Part shown: in pieces, positions 2,172 through 43,167 of the stretch
Numbering within the stretch: position 1 is the first letter of the stretch
Layout: every line of letters begins with the position of its first letter
Assembly: GCF_002564025.1 (NCBI RefSeq)
Contig: NZ_PDJH01000001.1
Coordinates: 62,001 to 126,000 of the forward strand
Origin: Flavimobilis soli
GTDB lineage: Bacteria > Actinomycetota > Actinomycetes > Actinomycetales > Cellulomonadaceae
DNA length: 64,000 bases
Direction: 5' to 3'
The notes under the pieces: generated by a model
Database searches by the model: none
What the model was told of the DNA's origin: nothing
Seen by the model: the letters and a program-made list of their open reading frames with translations, nothing else
Translations under genes and position numbers: made by a program

Positions 2172-2192
2172 TCGTCGATCCTAGGTGGGCGT

Positions 2193-2225
2193 CCGCGGGC
2201 CCGCCCGGTCCAGGCGGGCCCGCGG
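2193..2225 (-). terminator. Hairpin after the GH13 alpha-glucosidase gene
   Basis: Two perfect 13-base arms (2193-2205 and 2213-2225) enclose a 7-base loop, just beyond the stop of the minus-strand glucosidase gene. There is no U-tract. It probably ends or stabilises that transcript before the MOSC gene. Confidence 0.55.
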
Positions 2226-2233
2226 CGTGGCGC

Positions 2234-3952
2234 TCAGACGCTGGCGGGAACGGCCCAGACGGTCGTGTCGGTGGGCACGCCGTCGCCGAGCGGTCCGCTC
2301 GCTACGAGGACCTCGTAGCCGGCGGGCACCTGGACGGGCGCGTCGCCGAGGTTGGTCAGGACGAGCAGGTCGCCGTTGCGGAAAGCGACGACGGCTGGGT
2401 CGTCCGCGTACGCGTCGACCCACGCGAGGTCGCCTGCACCGAGCCCGAGGCGGCGTCGCTCGGCGAGAGCGGTGCGGTAGAGCTCGTAGGTCGAGCCGGC
2501 GACGCCGCGCTGACGGTCCGCGGCGAGCTCGCGGTAGCTGTCGGGCTGGGGGAGCCACGTCGCTCCGGTCGGGCCGAAGCCCAGGCCCGGGGCGTCGCCC
2601 TCCCACGGCATGGGGACGCGGCAGCCGTCGCGACCCGCCTCCGTGTGGCCGGTCCGGAACCATGCCGGGTCCTGGCGGAGCGAGTCGTCGAGAGTCGTGT
2701 GCTCGGGCAGACCGAGCTCCTCGCCCTGGTACAGGTACGCGGAGCCGGGCAGGGCGAGCATCTGCAGCGTCGCCGCGCGGGCGCGCCGCAGGCCGACGAC
2801 GGCGTCCGGCTGCGGCTCGTGCGCGCGGATGCCGTTCGGGCGTGCGCCGCCCGGGATGCCGAGCCGGGAGGCGTGCCGCACGACGTCGTGGTTCGACAGG
2901 ACCCACGTCGTCGGCGCCCCGACCTCGTCGTACGCCCCGAGCGACGTCGTCACGACGTCGCGCAGCGCCTTCGCGTCCCACGGCGTCGTGAGGTACGCGA
3001 AGTTGAAGGCCTGCTGCATCTCGTCGGGGCGGACGTAGCGGGCGAGAGCCGAGAGCGGCTCGACCCAGGCCTCGGCGCACAGCGCACGGTCGCCGTCGTA
3101 CTCCGCGAGGACCTTGTTCCACTCGCGGTAGATCTCGTGGACGCCCGGCTGGTCGAACATCGGGGTGAGCGCGGTGACGTTCGCGGCCTCGCCCGTCGAG
3201 CCGTCGACCATCGACGTGTTGCCGTCCCAGTCGGGCAGGCCGTCCTTCTTGACCATGCCGTGCGCGACGTCGACGCGGAAGCCGTCGACGCCCTTGTCGA
3301 GCCAGAACCGCAGGACGTCGATCATCTCCGCGCGGACCTCGGGGTTGGTCCACTCGAGGTCCGGCTGCGACGAGTCGAACATGTGCAGGTACCACTGCGT
3401 GTCCGTGACGCCCAGGCGCTCGGCGTCGGGGTGCCGGTCGACGCGCGTCCAGGCCGGGCCGCCGAAGACGGAGCCCCAGTTGTTCGGCGGCTCCTCGCCG
3501 TCGGCCTTGCCGTCGCGGAACATGTAGCGCGCGCGCTCGGGGCTGCCGGGCCCGGCGGCCAGGGCCTCCTGGAACCACCTGTGCTGGTCCGACGTGTGGT
3601 TCGGGACGAGGTCGATCACGACGCGCAGCCCGAGCGCGTGCGCGCGTCCGAGGAGCGCGTCGAAGTCCTCGAGCGTGCCGAACAGCGGGTCGACGTCGCG
3701 GTAGTCGGCGACGTCGTAGCCGCCGTCGGCCTGCGGCGAGCGGTAGAAGGGGGAGAGCCAGAGCGCGTCGACGCCGAGCGCGGCGAGGTGGTCGAGGCGC
3801 GACGTGATGCCGGCGAGGTCGCCCATGCCGTCACCGTCGGCGTCCGCGAAGGAGCGCGGGTACACCTGGTAGATCACGGCGTCGCGCCACCACTCGGCGG
3901 GCTCGGGATGGGCGGGGTGGATCGTGGTCGCGGTGACGGCGGTGTTCGTCAC
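2234..3952 (-). CDS. GH13 alpha-glucosidase (oligo-1,6-glucosidase / maltase type)
   Basis: Intracellular retaining glycosidase that releases glucose from the non-reducing end of maltose or isomalto-oligosaccharides. The 572-residue protein opens with WWRDAVIYQVYPRSF and has the GH13 regions DLVPNHTS, GFRVDVAHG (nucleophile Asp about 228), CAEAWVE (acid/base Glu about 294) and SNHD (Asp about 356). No signal peptide is seen. I chose GTG at 3952 because GAGG lies five bases upstream; an in-frame ATG at 3988 lacks this. A LacI-like palindrome lies 44 bases upstream. The gene follows the LacI gene on the same strand and faces away from the mal transporter genes, so imported maltodextrin is its likely substrate. 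Confidence 0.88.
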   Translation of the reverse strand: MTNTAVTATTIHPAHPEPAEWWRDAVIYQVYPRSFADADGDGMGDLAGITSRLDHLAALGVDALWLSPFYRSPQADGGYDVADYRDVDPLFGTLEDFDALLGRAHALGLRVVIDLVPNHTSDQHRWFQEALAAGPGSPERARYMFRDGKADGEEPPNNWGSVFGGPAWTRVDRHPDAERLGVTDTQWYLHMFDSSQPDLEWTNPEVRAEMIDVLRFWLDKGVDGFRVDVAHGMVKKDGLPDWDGNTSMVDGSTGEAANVTALTPMFDQPGVHEIYREWNKVLAEYDGDRALCAEAWVEPLSALARYVRPDEMQQAFNFAYLTTPWDAKALRDVVTTSLGAYDEVGAPTTWVLSNHDVVRHASRLGIPGGARPNGIRAHEPQPDAVVGLRRARAATLQMLALPGSAYLYQGEELGLPEHTTLDDSLRQDPAWFRTGHTEAGRDGCRVPMPWEGDAPGLGFGPTGATWLPQPDSYRELAADRQRGVAGSTYELYRTALAERRRLGLGAGDLAWVDAYADDPAVVAFRNGDLLVLTNLGDAPVQVPAGYEVLVASGPLGDGVPTDTTVWAVPASV

Positions 3953-3995
3953 GGGGGCCTCGTTTCGTCGTCGGTGTGCGCGCCGCACGGCGCTG

Positions 3996-4009
3996 TCGAA
4001 TCGATTTGA
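3996..4009. promoter_or_regulatory. LacI-family-like operator upstream of the alpha-glucosidase gene
   Basis: TCGAATCGATTTGA is a 14-base palindrome with one mismatched pair and a central CG, the usual form of LacI/GalR operators. It lies 44 bases before the glucosidase start and just after the LacI gene terminator. Control by the neighbouring LacI protein is inferred. Confidence 0.5.
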
Positions 4010-4017
4010 TCAACACT

Positions 4018-4058
4018 ACGCGCAAGGCCCCGGCGGCAACCACCGGGGCCTTGCGCGT
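4018..4058 (-). terminator. Terminator hairpin of the LacI-type gene
   Basis: Perfect 16-base arms (4018-4033 and 4043-4058) around a 9-base loop begin seven bases past the stop of the regulator gene. This separates it from the downstream glucosidase gene, which therefore probably has its own promoter. Confidence 0.65.
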
Positions 4059-4064
4059 CGAGCG

Positions 4065-5102
4065 TCAGTCGGCGGTCGGAGCCACACCCGTGGACTCGCG
4101 CACGACGAGCTCCGGGTGGAAGAGGATCTCCGAGCGGGGGATCGGGTCGCCCGCGATCTGCGACATGAGCGACGTGACCGCCGCGGTCGCCATCGCCGTG
4201 ACAGGCTGCCGGATCGTCGTGAGCGGCGGGTCCGTGAACGCGATGAGCGGCGAGTCGTCGTACCCGACGATCGAGACGTCGCGGGGGACCTTGAGGCCGC
4301 GGCTGCGTGCGGCACGCGTGGCGCCGAGAGCCATGAGGTCGGAGCCGCAGATGATGCCGGTGTGGCCACTGTCGATCAGCTCGCCTGCGGCGGCCTGGCC
4401 GCCCTCGACCGAGAAGAGCGACGTGGCGACGTGCGGCGTGACGTCCTGCTCCCCGAGGTGGCGCGCGATCGACGTCGTGAAGCCCTCGACCTTGCGACGC
4501 ACCGTGACGTACCGGTCCTGACCGATCGCGAGGCCGATCTTGCGGTGGCCGAGCGACACGAGGTGGCGGACCGACAGCTCCATCGAGTTGTAGTCGTCGT
4601 TCGAGATGAACGGCGCGTCGATGCCCTCGGCGTAACCGTTGATCATCACGAGGTGCACGCCGCGGTCACGGAGGCGGTGATAACGCTCGTGGGAGGCGGT
4701 CACGTCGGCGTGGAGGCCCGAGACGAAGATGATGCCGGCGACCCCGTGGTCGAGGAGCATCTCGATGTACTCGTCCTCGGTCGTGCCGCCGGGGGACTGG
4801 GTGCACAGGAGCGGGGTGTAGCCGTGCTCGGACAGGCGCGACTCGATCACCTGGGCGAAGGCCGGGAAGACCGGGTTGGTCAGCTCGGGGACCACGAGGC
4901 CGATGAGGCCTGCAGAGTGGCTCTTCAGCTTCTCCGGCCGCTCGTAGCCGAGCAGGTCGAGGGCGGCAAGGACCGCCTGGCGCGTCTCTCCGGACACGCC
5001 CGCCTTGCCGTTCAGCACCCGGGACACGGTCGCGGTGCTGACACCAGCCTGCGCTGCTAGATCGGAAAGACGGGTGCGCACGGGTTGCAATGTACGGGAC
5101 AA
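4065..5102 (-). CDS. malR: LacI/GalR-family regulator of the maltodextrin locus (MalR-like)
   Basis: Transcription factor with an N-terminal LacI helix-turn-helix (TRLSDLAAQAGVSTATVSRVLNGKAGVS) and a periplasmic-binding-like sugar domain: GLIGLVVPELTNPVFPAFAQ, GIIFVSGLHAD, FISNDDYNSMELSVRHLVSLGHRKIGL and VGYDDSPLIAFTDPPLTTIRQP. It is 345 residues long if it starts at TTG 5102, which has GGAGG four bases upstream. GTG 5081 is the alternative and gives 338 residues with a more usual N-terminus but no ribosome-binding site. It is divergent from malE, so it probably represses the mal genes and is released by a maltodextrin. The target is inferred from context. Confidence 0.87.
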   Translation of the reverse strand: MSRTLQPVRTRLSDLAAQAGVSTATVSRVLNGKAGVSGETRQAVLAALDLLGYERPEKLKSHSAGLIGLVVPELTNPVFPAFAQVIESRLSEHGYTPLLCTQSPGGTTEDEYIEMLLDHGVAGIIFVSGLHADVTASHERYHRLRDRGVHLVMINGYAEGIDAPFISNDDYNSMELSVRHLVSLGHRKIGLAIGQDRYVTVRRKVEGFTTSIARHLGEQDVTPHVATSLFSVEGGQAAAGELIDSGHTGIICGSDLMALGATRAARSRGLKVPRDVSIVGYDDSPLIAFTDPPLTTIRQPVTAMATAAVTSLMSQIAGDPIPRSEILFHPELVVRESTGVAPTAD

Positions 5103-37949: not shown

Positions 37950-38732
37950 TCAGTCGGTGACCACGAGCTCGAGCGTCGAGTGCTTCTTGCCCGGCACGAG
38001 CGCGGCGTCGTACAGCTGGGAACCGACCATCTCGTCCGCGGCGTCGAGCAGCTCGGCCGCCGTGCGCGGAGGCTCCGCGGCCCTGCGCAGCAGGTGCCCG
38101 GTGAGCAGGCCGCGCGTGTGCTTCGCGTGGTGCGAGACGACCGAGCGCTTCCCGTCGAGCTCCCGCAGCACCTTGACCTGCACGTGCTCGGCCCCGGCGG
38201 GCACGCGCCACGCCGCGGCGTAGCTCGAGGACCGGCAGTCGACGACGACGTCACCCGCAGCGCGCTCGTCGAGCACGGTGAGCTCGGGGCGCCAGAACTT
38301 CGCGAGCGGGCCGATGCCCGGCAGGTCGACCGACATCGACAGCCGGTAGGCCGGCACGCGGTCGGTCGGACGCACGAGCCCCCACAGCGCCGAGAACGTG
38401 AGGACGTCCGCGAGCCGGCCGCGTGCGACGTCGTCGTCCCCGTCGAGGACTGACGCGAGGTCAGCCGCCGCGTACAGGACACCCGTGTAGACGCGCGCGC
38501 CCGGCGCTGCGGGCGCCGTCGTCAGCGCCGTGTTGCGCGCGACCTCCTCCATGAGGCTCGCGCCGACGCCGAGCACCTCGAGCGCATCGTCGTGAGCGGA
38601 GGCCTCGGCGAGCGCCTCGAGCGCCTTGCGCCGTGCCGGCGCGAGCTCCGCGTGCACGAGCGTGTCCAGGTCGACGGGCGCGCCAGAGGTCGGGGCGGTC
38701 TTGCCCTCGGACGGGGGAAGCAGGATCAGCAC
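37950..38732 (-). CDS. yaaA: Peroxide stress protein YaaA family (DUF328)
   Basis: 260-residue protein with the YaaA start MLILLPPSEGKT and the conserved ARVYTGVLYAAADL, SALWGLVRPTDRVPAYRLSM, VDCRSSSYAAAW and VVSHHAKHTRGLLTGHLL. In E. coli YaaA lowers free iron and limits peroxide damage to DNA. The length matches the family. It is a single gene divergent from rnpB. Confidence 0.9.
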   Translation of the reverse strand: MLILLPPSEGKTAPTSGAPVDLDTLVHAELAPARRKALEALAEASAHDDALEVLGVGASLMEEVARNTALTTAPAAPGARVYTGVLYAAADLASVLDGDDDVARGRLADVLTFSALWGLVRPTDRVPAYRLSMSVDLPGIGPLAKFWRPELTVLDERAAGDVVVDCRSSSYAAAWRVPAGAEHVQVKVLRELDGKRSVVSHHAKHTRGLLTGHLLRRAAEPPRTAAELLDAADEMVGSQLYDAALVPGKKHSTLELVVTD

Positions 38733-38827
38733 GCGCCAACCCTAGTCGCCGCCCGCGCCGCATCCGGGCGTCGCACGCCCGTCGTGACCGACGTCGCACC
38801 CGTGTCCGGGTCGGGCTCCCGCGACGG

Positions 38828-38833
38828 TACGAT
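38828..38833 (+). promoter_or_regulatory. -10 box of rnpB
   Basis: TACGAT preceded by GG, seven bases before the predicted RNA 5' end, the expected distance for a start at about 38841. Confidence 0.45.
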
Positions 38834-38840
38834 TGCCGAG

Positions 38841-39216
38841 CGGATGAGTCGGTCGGGCGGCCGCGTTGCACCTCCGGGTGCACCGAGGAACGTCCGGGCT
38901 CCGTAGAGCAAGGTGGTGGGTAACGCCCACCCGGGGTGACCCGCGGGAAAGTGCCACAGAGAGCAGACCGCCCGTCCTCGGACGGGTAAGGGTGAAACGG
39001 TGGTGTAAGAGACCACCAGCGCGGCGGGCGACCGTCGCGGCTAGGTAAACCCCACCTGGAGCAAGACCAGACAGGGTGCGTTCGAGGGCTGCTCGCCCGA
39101 GCACCCGGGTAGGTCGCTGGAGGCGTGCGGCAACGTACGTCGTAGATGGATGGCCGCCCATCGGAGCGAGGCAACTCGCCCGTGGACAGAACCCGGCGTA
39201 CAGACCGACTCATCCG
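38841..39216 (+). ncRNA. rnpB: RNase P RNA (type A)
   Basis: Catalytic RNA that matures the 5' ends of tRNAs, about 376 bases. The ends CGGATGAGTCGGTC (38841-38854) and GACCGACTCATCCG (39203-39216) form the closing P1 helix. The universal blocks are present: GAGGAACGTCCGGGCTCC (from 38882), AGTGCCACAGAGAGCAGACC (from 38951), GGTAAGGGTGAAACGGTG (from 38985) and GACAGAACCCGGCGTACAG (from 39185). Open frames crossing this region are not genes. An IS-like element starts 70 bases past the 3' end. Confidence 0.95.
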
Positions 39217-39234
39217 CCCTCTCGGTTACGCCGA

Positions 39235-39269
39235 ACTCCCGCAACACGGTCGAACGGTGCTGCGGGAGT
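39235..39269 (+). terminator. Terminator hairpin of rnpB
   Basis: ACTCCCGCA (39235-39243) pairs with TGCGGGAGT (39261-39269), and inner CAC/GTG pairs extend the stem. It lies 18 bases past the RNA end and before the mobile element. Confidence 0.6.
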
Positions 39270-39282
39270 CCGGTCGTAGGAG

Positions 39283-39285
39283 TTA
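39283..39285. repeat. Left target-site duplication, TTA
   Basis: TTA directly outside the left terminal repeat matches the TTA at 41896-41898 outside the right one, as expected for a short duplication made by an IS5-type transposase. Confidence 0.6.
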
Positions 39286-39303
39286 GAGCTCGCGCGGATA
39301 GGA
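39286..39303 (+). repeat. Left terminal inverted repeat of the mobile element
   Basis: GAGCTCGCGCGGATAGGA is the exact reverse complement of 41878-41895. Confidence 0.85.
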
Positions 39304-39314
39304 CGGCGTATGGA

Positions 39315-40154
39315 TCAGGGGCACCGGGCAGGACGAGAGTCCCACCGGTAGCGCTTCCAGGACTGCCGGACCAGGCGGCGGATGATGATGATCGCGCTGG
39401 CCAGCGCCACCCAGGCGTTCTGCACGCACCCTTGCCGGTCGGTCACCCTCGCCAGCGCCGAGAACCCTCTGTTGTGCCATGAGTTGGTCCGCTCGACGAC
39501 CCATCGACGAGTGTGGTTGATAGGCAGGAATACCCCCTTGGGAGTGATGTTCGGGGTGCAGCCCAGCTCGGAGAGAAGATCCCGGGTCCGAGCCGAGTCA
39601 TAGCCCGCATCCAGGTGAACCGTGATGACCTCAGGAAGCCTGAATCCGACCACGGCGAGGGTCTCTAGCGTCGGACGCAGGAGCGGAGAGTCGTTCCTGT
39701 TGGCCCCGGCCAGCACCCATCCGATCGGTATCCCGCCGCCGTCCACGAGCACCGATCTCTTGAGACCCAATTTGCCGCGGTCGACAGGGCTGCGGCCGGT
39801 GTTCTCTCCTCCGCACGGTGCCTTGACGATGCATCCGTCGACCACGAGGTTGTCCAGGTCGAGGCCGACAGCCTGGTCGTAGGCTTCCAGCGCCAGGTGG
39901 TGGAGCCGCTCGAACACGCCGGCACGGATCCACTCGTCCCGGCGGGCTCGCATCGTGGTCGCCGAGCAGGTCTCATCGGCGTGCTGCTGGTAGGTACCTC
40001 CCAGGACGAGGCGGGCCAGAAGCTTGTCAAAGACGACCCGGTCTGGGATGCGCGGGCGGTGACACCCCAAAGGGTGGTTGATGTTGCGTTCGGGCAGCAG
40101 GGCTCGGAACTGTTCCCACAGAGGGTCGGCGATGAAGCCGGGCAGGACGGGCAC
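39315..40154 (-). CDS. IS5-family DDE transposase
   Basis: 279-residue transposase. The DDE triad is Asp106 (LVVDGCIVKAPCGGENTG), Asp182 (VHLDAGYDSARTRDLL) and Glu221 in RRWVVERTNSWHNRGF, the Y/R-E-R context of the IS5 family. The N-terminal DUF4096-like part (LWEQFRALLPE...LLARLVLGGTYQQHADETCSATTMRARRDEWI) is present. A single uninterrupted frame suggests no frameshift is needed. The start is GTG at 40152-40154 (MPVLPGF) with a weak ribosome-binding site. The stop is 29 bases inside the left terminal repeat. Confidence 0.92.
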   Translation of the reverse strand: MPVLPGFIADPLWEQFRALLPERNINHPLGCHRPRIPDRVVFDKLLARLVLGGTYQQHADETCSATTMRARRDEWIRAGVFERLHHLALEAYDQAVGLDLDNLVVDGCIVKAPCGGENTGRSPVDRGKLGLKRSVLVDGGGIPIGWVLAGANRNDSPLLRPTLETLAVVGFRLPEVITVHLDAGYDSARTRDLLSELGCTPNITPKGVFLPINHTRRWVVERTNSWHNRGFSALARVTDRQGCVQNAWVALASAIIIIRRLVRQSWKRYRWDSRPARCP

Positions 40155-40189
40155 GTGGTCTTGTGATCGTCGTCGTCGAGAAGAAGGGC

Positions 40190-40233
40190 GGGGCCGCCGC
40201 GCCGTACCCGTCCGGGCGCGGTGCGGCGGCCCC
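40190..40233 (-). terminator. Hairpin between the MFS gene and the transposase gene
   Basis: GGGGCCGCCGC (40190-40200) pairs with GCGGCGGCCCC (40223-40233), eight bases past the transporter stop. It should stop transporter transcripts from running into the transposase gene. Confidence 0.6.
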
Positions 40234-40240
40234 GGTCCTG

Positions 40241-41659
40241 CTACCCGACCTGCGGCTGCCCCGCCGCGGTGGACGGCGAGCGGGAGATGACCACGGCACC
40301 GAAGACCAGCCCGATAACGGCGAGCACCGCAGCGACCACGAACGGGTCCCCGGAGTGCAGGGCCGGTGCGAACCCGAGGCCGACGTAGACGGCCACCCCG
40401 GCTGCTCCGCCGAGCTGGTCAGATGCTCGCTGGACGCCGGAGGCGATCCCGGCGTCCTCCTCGGTGGTGCCGCTGACTGCGATGTACTGCAGACCCACGA
40501 GCCCGAAGCCCATGCCCGCTGCGATCAGTAGCATCGCCGGGAGCAGCCACACCGCTCCACCATCCAGGACGGCCACGAGCGCGACCACGCCCATCGCGCC
40601 GGCAGCCGCTGCCAGGCCGACCAGCACGCAGGCGCGTGCGCCCCAGTGTCCCAGCAGCCGAGGCACGAGCACCGAGGCCACGATCAGCGCCACGGCCAGG
40701 GGCAGCATCGTCAGGCCTGCCCCCAGAGGCCCGATACCGAGCCTGTCCTGCAGGTAGAACGTGAACAGCAGGAACGAGGTCGACAACGCACCGCTGAGCA
40801 GCATCGTCGTCAGGTTCGCCCGCAGCCGGGCCCGATCGGCGAAGAAGGTCAGCGGGACCAGCGGGTTCGGCGACCTCGACTCGACCCGCACGAACCCGGC
40901 AGCAGCCAGCACCGCGCACACCAGCGCGACCCCGCTGACCCACAGGCCGGTGGCAGGCTCGCCCGCCTCGACCGCGGCGTAGACGAACAGCAGCGGGCAC
41001 GCGGTCAGCAGGAGCGAACCGGGAAGGTCCAAGCGGCACCGTCCCCCGGACGCGGGCCGGTCGGCCGGTACCAGGAGCAGCGCGGCCACGATCACGACCA
41101 GGATGAAGGGCACCGAGACCAGGAAGACCCAGCGCCAGCCCAGGTGGGCGGTGATGATCCCTGACAGGGCGAACCCGAGAACCAGGCCGCAGCTGGCCAC
41201 GGCCGCCCACACGCTCAGGGCCCGTGAGCGGCGCGGCCCCTCGGGGAAGAGCAGCACGATGGTCGCCATCGCCGCGGGCAGCGCGACAGCCTCGCCCGCG
41301 CCCTGGAGCAGGCGGGCCGCGACCAGGACCGGAAAGGACGGGGCCAGGCCAGCCAGCAGGGAGGCCGCGCCGAAGACGCTCGTGCCGACCAGGAGGGTGC
41401 GGCGGCGGCCGAGAAGGTCACCGAGCCGACCGCCGAGCATCAGCAGCCCTCCGCCGGTGATGGTGTAGCCGACCACGACCCAGGTCAGGGAGTGTCCCCC
41501 GACGCCGAGGTCCGCGCCGATCGAGGGCAGCGCGATGTTGACCACGGTCACGTCGACCGCGATGAAGAACTGCAGCATCGACATCGCGCACAGCACGAGC
41601 CATGCGCGCACAGGGGCGGGACCGATCCCGCATGAAGTGGTGGAAGTGCCTGAAAGCAT
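40241..41659 (-). CDS. MFS transporter, DHA2-type drug:H+ antiporter
   Basis: 472-residue major facilitator protein with about 12-14 membrane helices. Motifs are VDVTVVNIALPSIGADL near helix 1 (motif D1), GGRLGDLLGRRRTLLVG (motif A), RLLQGAGEAVALPAAMA (motif B) and GLVLGFALSGIITAHLGWRWVFLVSVP (motif C, the antiporter signature). It most resembles the EmrB/QacA-like DHA2 group, so export of an antibiotic or toxic compound is likely. ATG 41659 is preceded by GGAG; a TTG one codon earlier is less likely. It lies within the mobile element behind a leader with hairpin and short open frame. The substrate is unknown. Confidence 0.87.
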   Translation of the reverse strand: MLSGTSTTSCGIGPAPVRAWLVLCAMSMLQFFIAVDVTVVNIALPSIGADLGVGGHSLTWVVVGYTITGGGLLMLGGRLGDLLGRRRTLLVGTSVFGAASLLAGLAPSFPVLVAARLLQGAGEAVALPAAMATIVLLFPEGPRRSRALSVWAAVASCGLVLGFALSGIITAHLGWRWVFLVSVPFILVVIVAALLLVPADRPASGGRCRLDLPGSLLLTACPLLFVYAAVEAGEPATGLWVSGVALVCAVLAAAGFVRVESRSPNPLVPLTFFADRARLRANLTTMLLSGALSTSFLLFTFYLQDRLGIGPLGAGLTMLPLAVALIVASVLVPRLLGHWGARACVLVGLAAAAGAMGVVALVAVLDGGAVWLLPAMLLIAAGMGFGLVGLQYIAVSGTTEEDAGIASGVQRASDQLGGAAGVAVYVGLGFAPALHSGDPFVVAAVLAVIGLVFGAVVISRSPSTAAGQPQVG

Positions 41660-41761
41660 CAATTGCTCCGTCGCTCTGAAGAGTTTCCGAGCAGCACGAA
41701 GGGCCGCTCCGGTCTGATCACGAAGCGGCTGGACGTTCCAGGTGAGGTGTTGCTGTGTGCC

Positions 41762-41788
41762 GGACGTCCCGCCGCTAGCGGGACGTCC
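41762..41788 (-). promoter_or_regulatory. Leader hairpin of the MFS gene, possible attenuator
   Basis: Perfect 11-base arms GGACGTCCCGC (41762-41772) and GCGGGACGTCC (41778-41788) enclose a 5-base loop in the untranslated leader, about 100 bases before the start codon. The stop codon of an 18-codon leader frame falls exactly in the loop. Confidence 0.5.
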
Positions 41789-41831
41789 TGGTCACTGCCG
41801 CGCAAGCGGCCGAGCTCGAAGCGCCTGACAT
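41775..41831 (-). CDS. Possible leader peptide, 18 residues
   Basis: ATG at 41831 opens a frame that reads MSGASSSAACAAVTRTSR and stops at TAG 41775-41777, inside the loop of the leader hairpin. TAGCAT lies seven bases before the ATG and could be a -10 box placing the transcript start at the ATG, giving a leaderless message. This is the layout of ribosome-mediated attenuators before actinobacterial drug-resistance genes. No protein evidence is possible at this size, so it remains a proposal. Confidence 0.35.
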   Translation of the reverse strand: MSGASSSAACAAVTRTSR

Positions 41832-41877
41832 GGTACAGATGCTAGCAGCGGGGAATATTCGCCCCCGGACCTGTCCC

Positions 41878-41895
41878 TCCTATCCGCGCGAGCTC
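41878..41895 (-). repeat. Right terminal inverted repeat of the mobile element
   Basis: TCCTATCCGCGCGAGCTC is the exact reverse complement of the left end, followed directly by TTA. Confidence 0.85.
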
Positions 41896-42135
41896 TTAGT
41901 CGGTGGGCTTGCCCGCACGAGCCCGCAGCGTGGCGCCGGCGAGCTTCATGGCGAGCGGCCAGCAGACCATGGTCAGGCAGAAGGCGATGGGCCAGGCGAT
42001 GACGAGCTGGAGCGGCCAGCTGCGGAGCCACTCCATCGTCGGGCCGGCGTGGAAGAGGCTCATGAGGCCGGACATCGAGGCGGCCATCATGAAGGTCATG
42101 AAGATCTGAGCGAGCAGGGCGAATCGCTTGTTCAC
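41896..42135 (-). CDS. DUF2798 small membrane protein
   Basis: 79-residue protein with two membrane helices (LAQIFMTFMMAASMSGLMSLFH and LVIAWPIAFCLTMVCWPLAMKLAG), the DUF2798 pattern. GTG 42135 has AAGGA seven bases upstream. Its TAA stop codon is exactly the TTA duplicated by the mobile element, so the insertion hit the last codon without changing the protein. Function is unknown. Confidence 0.8.
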   Translation of the reverse strand: MNKRFALLAQIFMTFMMAASMSGLMSLFHAGPTMEWLRSWPLQLVIAWPIAFCLTMVCWPLAMKLAGATLRARAGKPTD

Positions 42136-42374
42136 GGAGTGTTCCTTGTCTGCGACGACGGCACCGTCTCCCGGCGCCGCCACCGCTCATCGAGGGGGAG
42201 GGGCGCCATGGGTTCGCAACAGGACACGACTTCATCTCGGCTGGTGCGCCGAGTGCCGGAATAACCACACCGGCCAGGATCTTCTTGGCGCTCAGAGGGT
42301 AGCAAGAACGAAGCGGGGCTGCCGTGGCCCGTGCTGAGCCCGGAGCCGTACGAGAAGCGCTGTGCGCGGGACAA

Positions 42375-42940
42375 TCAGCCCTTCGCGGACGCCTTGGCGG
42401 CGCGCTTGTATTCGCGGACCTTGGTGAGGCTCTCGGGCGAGACGATGTCCGCGACGCTGCGGTATGAGCCCTCCTCGCCGTACGGGGCGCTCGCCTCGCG
42501 CCAGCCCTCGCCGTCGAAGCCGCACTGCTTGCCGAGCAACGCCAGGAAGATCTTCGCCTTCTGCTCCCGAAGCCCGGAAGCGCCTTGAGGCGCTTGAGCA
42601 CGTCCTTGCCGCTCGGCGAGCCTGCTGTCCAGATCGCTGCGGCGTCGCCGCCGTGGTCGCGGACGATCGCCGCGCAGAGCTGCTGCACCCGTCCAGCCAT
42701 CGAGCCCGGGAAGCGGTGCACCGCTGGAGGCGTCCTGAAGACGTCGGCGAACGCCTCGGGGTCGTACTCCGCGATCGTTCTCGCCTCGATCGACCCGATG
42801 CGCTGCACGATCTTGAGCGGGCCCGCGAACGCCGTCTCCATGGCGACCTGCTGGTCGAGCAGCATGCCGATGAGGAGCGCGAGCGGGTCGCGGGAGAGAA
42901 GGTCGTCCGCTGCCGCGTCGGCAGTGATGTTCAGTGCCAT
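42375..42940 (-). pseudogene. HhH-GPD base-excision repair family gene with a frameshift
   Basis: The gene encodes a protein of the HhH-GPD base-excision DNA repair family (MALNITADAAADDLLSRDPLALLIGMLLDQQVAMETAFAGPLKIVQRIG). It is split into two frames. The first part ends at KRLKALPGFG; the rest, EQKAKIFLALLGKQCGFDGEGWREASAPYGEEGSYRSVADIVSPESLTKVREYKRAAKASAKG, is in another frame. One missing G in the run at 42566-42568 explains the shift; adding it gives 188 residues, the family's usual length. The start is ATG 42940. It may be a recent mutation or a sequencing error. Confidence 0.82.
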
Positions 42941-43167
42941 GCCCCCATCGTGGACGCGCCTGCGCCCGACCGCTAGCGTCCCCGTCGCTCCTCTTTGGTG
43001 TGCCCGACATCGCGCGTGCTCCGGCCGTGCCGGTTGAAGCAACCTGGCGCACAGGTCTCAGGTCGAGCACCCTGAGACCCGATGTCACGGGTGGAGATTC
43101 ATCTGCGGACCCGCGTCGGCGCCGAGCAACGGTCGCCGGCCTGCGCCGCACTCGACGAGGAGCTGTC
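42941..43167. other. Intergenic region with no gene recognised
   Basis: These 227 bases separate the divergent HhH-GPD and secreted-protein genes. They presumably hold both promoters. I see no RNA gene, repeat or clear operator. Confidence 0.4.

What the first reader, a model, noticed from the sequence alone, without database searches (positions are those of the whole stretch)
39286..41895. IS5-like element that carries a drug-exporter gene between its own ends
Seen: perfect 18-base terminal inverted repeats enclose one full-length IS5-family transposase and one complete DHA2-type MFS gene, with TTA on both outer sides. Known: IS5-group elements normally contain only the transposase. Inference: a self-mobile unit that spreads an efflux pump without composite IS ends. 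It sits 70 bases from rnpB, a safe site.
Basis: partly seen in the sequence, partly recalled or inferred. Interest (0 to 1): 0.75.

Follow-up and report, generated by a model that had tools for sequence, protein, structure and literature searches.

The report
Jumping gene carrying a drug pump
This is a small bacterial jumping gene that carries a drug-exporter gene together with that gene's own built-in control region, and near-identical copies sit at unrelated places in different kinds of actinobacteria, so pump and switch appear to travel as one self-contained package.

Summary
Window 39286-41895 is a 2610-bp unit with perfect 18-bp terminal inverted repeats (TIRs) and a TTA target-site duplication (TSD), enclosing an intact IS5-family transposase and a complete DHA2-type MFS exporter (nearest NCBIfam model LmrA, below its cut-off). 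This genome has one copy. The unit moves whole: Promicromonospora citrea has it, 2 differences, at an unrelated site with its own TAA duplication; Brevibacterium renqingii and an Intrasporangiaceae MAG share a 2600-bp version (99.8%) at different sites. With the window I found 7 TSD-flanked units, plus 3 with both TIRs but unmatched flanks. A TIR remains beside 20 of 56 related MFS genes, 0.08 expected. Transposase and MFS divergence correlate (r=0.86, n=12), suggesting one old association. So it is a "transporter IS", a known class; my 8 paper searches showed no description of this lineage. Transposition, substrate and induction are untested.

The parts
39283..39285 (.). left copy of the TTA target-site duplication
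   Evidence: TTA/TAA duplications also flank L012, L019, L021, L023, L055 and L145
39286..39303 (+). left terminal inverted repeat, 18 bp
39315..40154 (-). IS5-family DDE transposase, 279 aa, intact, GTG start
   Evidence: D106, D182 and E221 present
40189..40234 (-). strong GC-rich hairpin between the MFS stop and the transposase start, probable terminator
   Evidence: I4; a hairpin also folds upstream of the transposase in the other 5 elements looked at (no shuffle control); the T-run terminator scan found none
40241..41659 (-). DHA2-type MFS exporter gene, ATG start (listed from a TTG at 41662)
41660..41774 (-). leader RNA downstream of the leader ORF; with the 3' part of that ORF it holds hairpins 1:2, 3:4, 5:6 or the alternative 2:3, 4:5
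41775..41831 (-). leader ORF, 18 codons and stop, MSGASSSAACAAVTRTSR
   Evidence: related leader ORF at 49 of 56 MFS-homologue loci
41839..41844 (-). -10-like box TAGCAT, preceded by TGC, 7 nt before the leader ATG
   Evidence: TANNNT exactly 7 nt before the ATG in 49 of 49, preceded by TGN in 39 of 49
41878..41895 (-). right terminal inverted repeat, 18 bp
   Evidence: a TIR at the corresponding place in 20 of 56 MFS-homologue loci
41896..41898 (.). right copy of the TTA duplication; it is also the stop codon of the neighbouring DUF2798 ORF 41896-42183(-)

Best explanation
A single-IS (non-composite) transposon of the transporter-IS kind. An IS5-family transposase recognises the two 18-bp TIRs and moves everything between them into TWA targets, making 3-bp duplications. 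The cargo is a DHA2 MFS exporter with its own promoter, leader ORF, attenuator and terminator, so it should be expressed wherever the element lands. Likely control: transcription starts at or just before the leader ATG. With no drug, ribosomes finish the leader and arms 1:2, 3:4 and 5:6 pair, the last hiding the exporter's ribosome-binding site. A drug-stalled ribosome near the end of the leader covers arm 1, so 2:3 and 4:5 pair and the site opens. The exporter then removes a ribosome-targeting drug. SHOWN by sequence: both ends, TSDs, intact genes, copies at unrelated sites, conserved leader ORF and both pairing sets. INFERRED: active transposition, start site, drug stalling, substrate, direction of export.
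For: Ends and TSD. Seven TSD-flanked units including the window. P. citrea copy: 2 differences (1 a gap) at a different site. L019 against L021: 99.8% over 2600 bp, 5 mismatches, different hosts, flanks and TSDs. TIR (4 or fewer mismatches of 18) at the expected place in 20 of 56 MFS-homologue loci, 0.08 expected from shuffles. Transposase and MFS DNA identity to the window correlate across 12 loci: Pearson 0.86, Spearman 0.84. Similarity to sister ISs without the MFS stops at the transposase start codon, element position about 870: (H14, H15). Leader ORF in 49 of 56 loci, box spacing 7 nt in 49 of 49. Drug-off pairing 88.1% of cells, 50 double-change cells against 18.3 in shuffles; drug-on pairing 90.0%, 39 against 11.1; slid controls at most 47.6% and 40.9% paired. 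In the window's leader the ribosome-binding site is 0.50 unpaired when bases up to the leader stop codon are covered and 0.04-0.23 for the other edges tried.
Against: No transposition was observed and no empty site found. Of the 7 TSD-flanked units three have damage: L012 transposase frameshifted, L023 transposase partly deleted, L055 MFS interrupted by about 1 kb; the genes of L145 were not checked for intactness. Three units with both TIRs (L040, L044, L054) have no matching TSD. Most MFS homologues have no TIR (36 of 56). The attenuator simulation over 46 leaders is weak: 14 of 46 above 0.4 unpaired at the stop-codon edge against 2 of 46 with no ribosome, means 0.36 and 0.13. The measures least fooled by relatedness are not striking: pairs with double changes reached in 193 of 500 (off) and 44 of 500 (on) shuffles. 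One search's free consensus fold mixes the two states. The MFS scores below the LmrA cut-off, so the substrate is unknown.
Confidence: 0.85

Rival explanations
1. A chromosomal exporter gene next to an ordinary IS, with a chance second inverted repeat.
For: Exact 18-bp inverted pairs occur by chance twice elsewhere in this GC-rich window; 36 of 56 MFS homologues have no recognisable TIR.
Against: The same two ends enclose both genes at unrelated, TSD-flanked sites in other genera; TIR beside 20 of 56 homologues against 0.08 expected.
Confidence: 0.02
2. Remnant of a composite transposon: two IS copies once flanked the MFS gene and one has decayed to a single end.
For: Explains how a gene came to lie between a transposase and a distant TIR; in relative G014 a complete sister IS lies directly beside a passenger-bearing unit (L111).
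Against: Only the terminal repeat is present on the right, no IS remnant beyond it, and no inner TIR; the whole-unit state is shared by diverged copies. It may describe the origin but not the present unit.
Confidence: 0.08
3. The leader ORF is under another control, for example a transcription attenuator (hairpin 3:4 as terminator) or an amino-acid or general translation-stress sensor, not occlusion of the ribosome-binding site by a drug-responsive switch.
For: Published actinobacterial cases (lmrC and ARE5 genes) are described as using premature terminators switched by a leader ORF (passages of PMC8546547 and PMC12421871); the simulated opening of the binding site is weak across leaders.
Against: Hairpin 3:4 has no T-run, although T-poor terminators are used by actinobacteria (recalled); arm 6 contains the ribosome-binding site.
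Confidence: 0.35

Closest known systems
Transporter IS (tIS): IS elements with a passenger gene (PMC9330008, PMC7986276, PMC10132070; passages only)
   Same: One set of IS ends, one transposase, plus a gene with no evident role in transposition.
   Different: The cited passages mention tIS with hypothetical or unknown passengers (ISDsp3; ISKpn21, ISKpn65, ISRel10). Here the passenger is an exporter with a complete control region, and the association is old enough to have diverged across actinobacterial families.
Simple actinobacterial IS5-family elements (sister copies L111:934-1933 and L112:1199-2164; a transposase row named ISCgl6 family)
   Same: Closely similar TIRs, same transposase family; L111's transposase ORF is in the same tree.
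   Different: About 1.0 kb with the transposase alone; both sister copies have TAA on one side and TTA on the other, not a matching TSD.
LmrA lincomycin exporter of Streptomyces lincolnensis
   Same: Nearest NCBIfam model, 458.3 bits; a DHA2-type MFS.
   Different: Below the model's 850-bit cut-off; passages of PMC8546547 place lmrA under GlnR, not an attenuator.
Ribosome-mediated attenuators of lmrC, tiaA and are5sc (PMC8546547, PMC12421871; passages)
   Same: Leader ORF followed by mutually exclusive hairpins upstream of a resistance-type gene in actinobacteria.
   Different: Those precede ABCF genes and have other leader peptides; the leader found here gave 0 papers and no Rfam match at gathering threshold.

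Membership tests
IS5 family | transposase of the family | tested here: met
   NF033580, 150.4 bits against 110
IS5 family | terminal inverted repeats and short target duplication | tested here: met
   18-bp perfect TIRs, 3-bp TTA; the TNA target as an IS1031-subgroup mark is recalled, not tested
IS5 family | DDE triad with the Y-(2)-R-(3)-E-(6)-K signature (recalled) | tested here: inconclusive
   D106, D182, E221 present and R217-(3)-E221; H in place of Y and N in place of K by reading the sequence; no solved-structure comparison
Transporter IS (tIS) | passenger gene inside the ends of one IS, not between two IS copies | tested here: met
Transporter IS (tIS) | passenger moves with the element | tested here: met
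   by comparison only: TSD-flanked units in different genomes and sites; not by experiment
Composite transposon | two IS copies flank the cargo | tested here: not met
   one transposase, two TIRs, no inner TIR; one full-length element in the genome
Lmr(A) lincomycin exporter (NF000031) | score above the curated cut-off | tested here: not met
   458.3 against 850 bits
Ribosome-mediated attenuator | conserved leader ORF and mutually exclusive pairings | tested here: met
   49 of 56 loci; off and on pairings; simulation weak
Ribosome-mediated attenuator | induction by ribosome-binding drugs through stalling on the leader | not testable with these tools
   needs reporter and toeprint assays

The most novel reading that the evidence does not exclude
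An ancient, actinobacteria-wide IS lineage that has carried, as one co-diverging unit, an exporter together with an undescribed drug sensor: a leader peptide (consensus near MSxASCxAACAAVTRTSR) translated from a leaderless transcript and a six-arm RNA switch, so that an inducible resistance circuit, not just a resistance gene, is the transposable thing. The same IS lineage can hold other cargo in the same slot (L111, second unit).
Probability: 0.5. Interest if true: 0.7.

Novelty: new variant of a known kind. Interest (0 to 1): 0.55.

Why it matters
Resistance-type genes are usually thought to need two IS copies or a large transposon to move; here a 2.6-kb single-IS unit carries an exporter, its promoter, its switch and its terminator and has recently entered different genera. 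Annotation pipelines list its parts as an ordinary transposase and an MFS gene, so such units can be overlooked; the TIR given here lets others search for them. The leader switch, if confirmed, is a new actinobacterial antibiotic sensor shared by a large exporter family, most of whose members found here lie outside recognisable elements.

Tried and rejected
Empty site: the joined window flanks match all five congeners' rnpB side only up to the rnpB end and do not cross the junction; the DUF2798 gene was found in 1 of 6 congeneric genomes, the window's own. Flank searches in 57 Brevibacterium genomes (self plus 3 trivial matches) and 81 Micromonospora genomes (self, one 68% match not reaching the junction, 2 trivial) gave no empty site. 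P. citrea's flank was not searched because one search failed.

Wider copies: 1 of 59 relatives plus self - only the window's own genome - has the linked element; 10 of 394 class genomes match the element at E<=1e-100, but only the window's own match includes the transposase; 24 of 392 Streptomyces genomes match at E<=1e-80, of which 2 span both genes (G447, G838), 1 spans part of both (G952), and 1 (G835) shows the transposase end alone. Plasmids: 89 records match, none covers 80% of the query. None of 10 carrier genomes showed a second linked copy.

Drug-induced transposition by read-through from the MFS gene was considered: both genes point the same way, but a strong hairpin lies before the transposase in the 6 elements looked at, so I do not favour it. 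The PADLOC scan gave nothing. The other two inverted pairs of the window are ordinary coding DNA. In one search locus L043 was marked as a TSD match with a 5-mismatch end 3 kb away; I dropped it as spurious. A first drug-off structure given to the pair counter had one helix in the wrong columns; one search replaces it.

Partial or failed scripts: one search stopped with an error after L062, so the last, weaker loci were not printed; one search covers all 56. One search built the transposase tree but stopped before printing all catalytic motifs; its L044 row held a stop and was dropped, and its L112 row was a 44-residue fragment, so little weight is put on that tree: the 5 MFS-linked rows needed 4 label changes, not better than chance (93 of 500 shuffles as low), the context of the other close rows being unknown. 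The correlation used only loci with at least 150 transposase and 900 MFS bases aligned and left out L001, L002 and L012; the loci are related, so n=12 overstates independence. The leader-ORF count uses a fixed rule; L039, scored as without, shows a like peptide further upstream.

Paper searches on this; library limited to open-licence PMC papers, ISfinder not searchable here. Supplementary files were not read.

Full report
What is there. Reading 39286-41895 confirms perfect 18-bp inverted ends with TTA on both outer sides, an intact 279-aa IS5-family transposase and a complete MFS gene, both on the minus strand. The next-best copies of the end within 38001-43000 have 5 or more mismatches and none lies between the genes. 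The element lies 69 bp from rnpB and its right TTA is also the stop codon of a DUF2798 ORF, so the insertion leaves both neighbours whole. This genome has one full-length copy.

Does it move as one piece? Yes, by comparison. P. citrea (L012) has the same element with 2 differences, one of them a gap that frameshifts the transposase, between unrelated flanks and with its own TAA duplication. L019 (Brevibacterium renqingii) and L021 (Intrasporangiaceae MAG) share a 2600-bp version, 5 mismatches, at different sites with TTA and TAA duplications. L023 (Nonomuraea; transposase partly deleted), L055 (Micromonospora craterilacus; MFS interrupted) and L145 (a Streptomyces; 72% identity over 21-2559, genes not checked) also have both ends and matching duplications. 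That makes 7 with the window. L040, L044 and L054 have both ends but unmatched flanks. L054 has no recognisable transposase.

How old is the association? Among 56 loci of the genome collection with an MFS at least 60% identical (from the 80 loci kept by the capped search), 20 keep a TIR at the promoter side with 4 or fewer mismatches, against 0.08 expected. On the MFS tree (54 rows) the TIR label needs 9 changes against 16.6 in shuffles, none of 500 as low: clustered, with repeated loss or gain. Related MFS genes fall in places that disagree with host taxonomy, for example Brevibacterium in several positions. Transposase and MFS identities to the window rise and fall together over 12 loci (r=0.86). 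Sister ISs without an MFS align to the element only to about position 870, the transposase start codon, so the cargo sits exactly between that codon and the far TIR. In relative G014 a unit of 2692 bp with a TTA duplication holds a different 364-aa ORF, no Pfam match, in that same slot.

The cargo's own control region. Upstream of the MFS gene a leader ORF, MSGASSSAACAAVTRTSR in the window, has relatives at 49 of 56 loci, including many without TIRs, so it belongs to the exporter and came along with it. A TANNNT box lies exactly 7 nt before its ATG in 49 of 49, with TGN before it in 39 of 49: the transcript probably begins at or next to the ATG. No standard -35/-10 promoter was found by the scan. 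The leader RNA can form arms 1:2, 3:4, 5:6 or alternatively 2:3 and 4:5. Both sets are kept in 47 leaders: 88.1% and 90.0% of cells paired, slid controls at most 47.6% and 40.9%, double-change cells 50 against 18.3 and 39 against 11.1 in shuffles. The counts of pairs and pair types do not clearly exceed shuffles (193 and 44, 80 and 159 of 500 as high), and shuffles do not allow for relatedness. Covering bases up to the leader stop codon opens the ribosome-binding site of the window's leader to 0.50 unpaired; over 46 leaders the effect is weak. I therefore hold the attenuator reading at about 0.65 and its exact mechanism lower.

What it exports. NCBIfam puts LmrA first but below cut-off; the nearest solved structures by sequence are EfpA and QacA-type exporters. 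A ribosome-targeting substrate is inferred from LmrA kinship and the leader.

Comparison with the known. Transporter ISs are an accepted class (passages of PMC9330008, PMC7986276, PMC10132070). In eight searches of the open-licence PMC library I saw no report of this lineage, and the leader peptide words gave no paper. ISfinder could not be searched, so a named relative may exist there. Hence: new variant of a known kind.

Noticed in passing
L111:1937-4628 (G014): A second passenger-bearing unit of the same IS lineage: TIRs, TTA on both sides, transposase 3649-4602 and a 364-aa ORF 2178-3272 without a Pfam match; a simple sister IS lies directly beside it at 934-1933.
   Followed up: partly
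L100:1887-3227 (E. coli IncQ1 plasmid NZ_CP010245.1) and hits H9-H12: Small E. coli and Salmonella plasmids carry an MFS gene 68-70% identical in DNA to this one over 45-47% of the element; in L100 the conserved leader ORF was not seen.
   Followed up: partly
L099:5168-6502 (Rhodococcus gordoniae plasmid pDND3B): A related MFS gene with the leader ORF MSGASCSAACAAVTWSSR sits beside transfer genes on a mobilizable plasmid.
   Followed up: partly
L055:7008-8081: About 1.07 kb of other DNA interrupts the MFS gene of the Micromonospora craterilacus element; nature not determined.
   Followed up: partly
L054:5764-7654: A 1891-bp derivative with both TIRs and the MFS but no recognisable transposase, without a matching TSD; possibly a non-autonomous form.
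   Followed up: no
window 10983/11902 and 62428/63628: Two further exact 18-bp inverted pairs in ordinary coding DNA, showing that such pairs arise by chance in this GC-rich window.
   Followed up: yes
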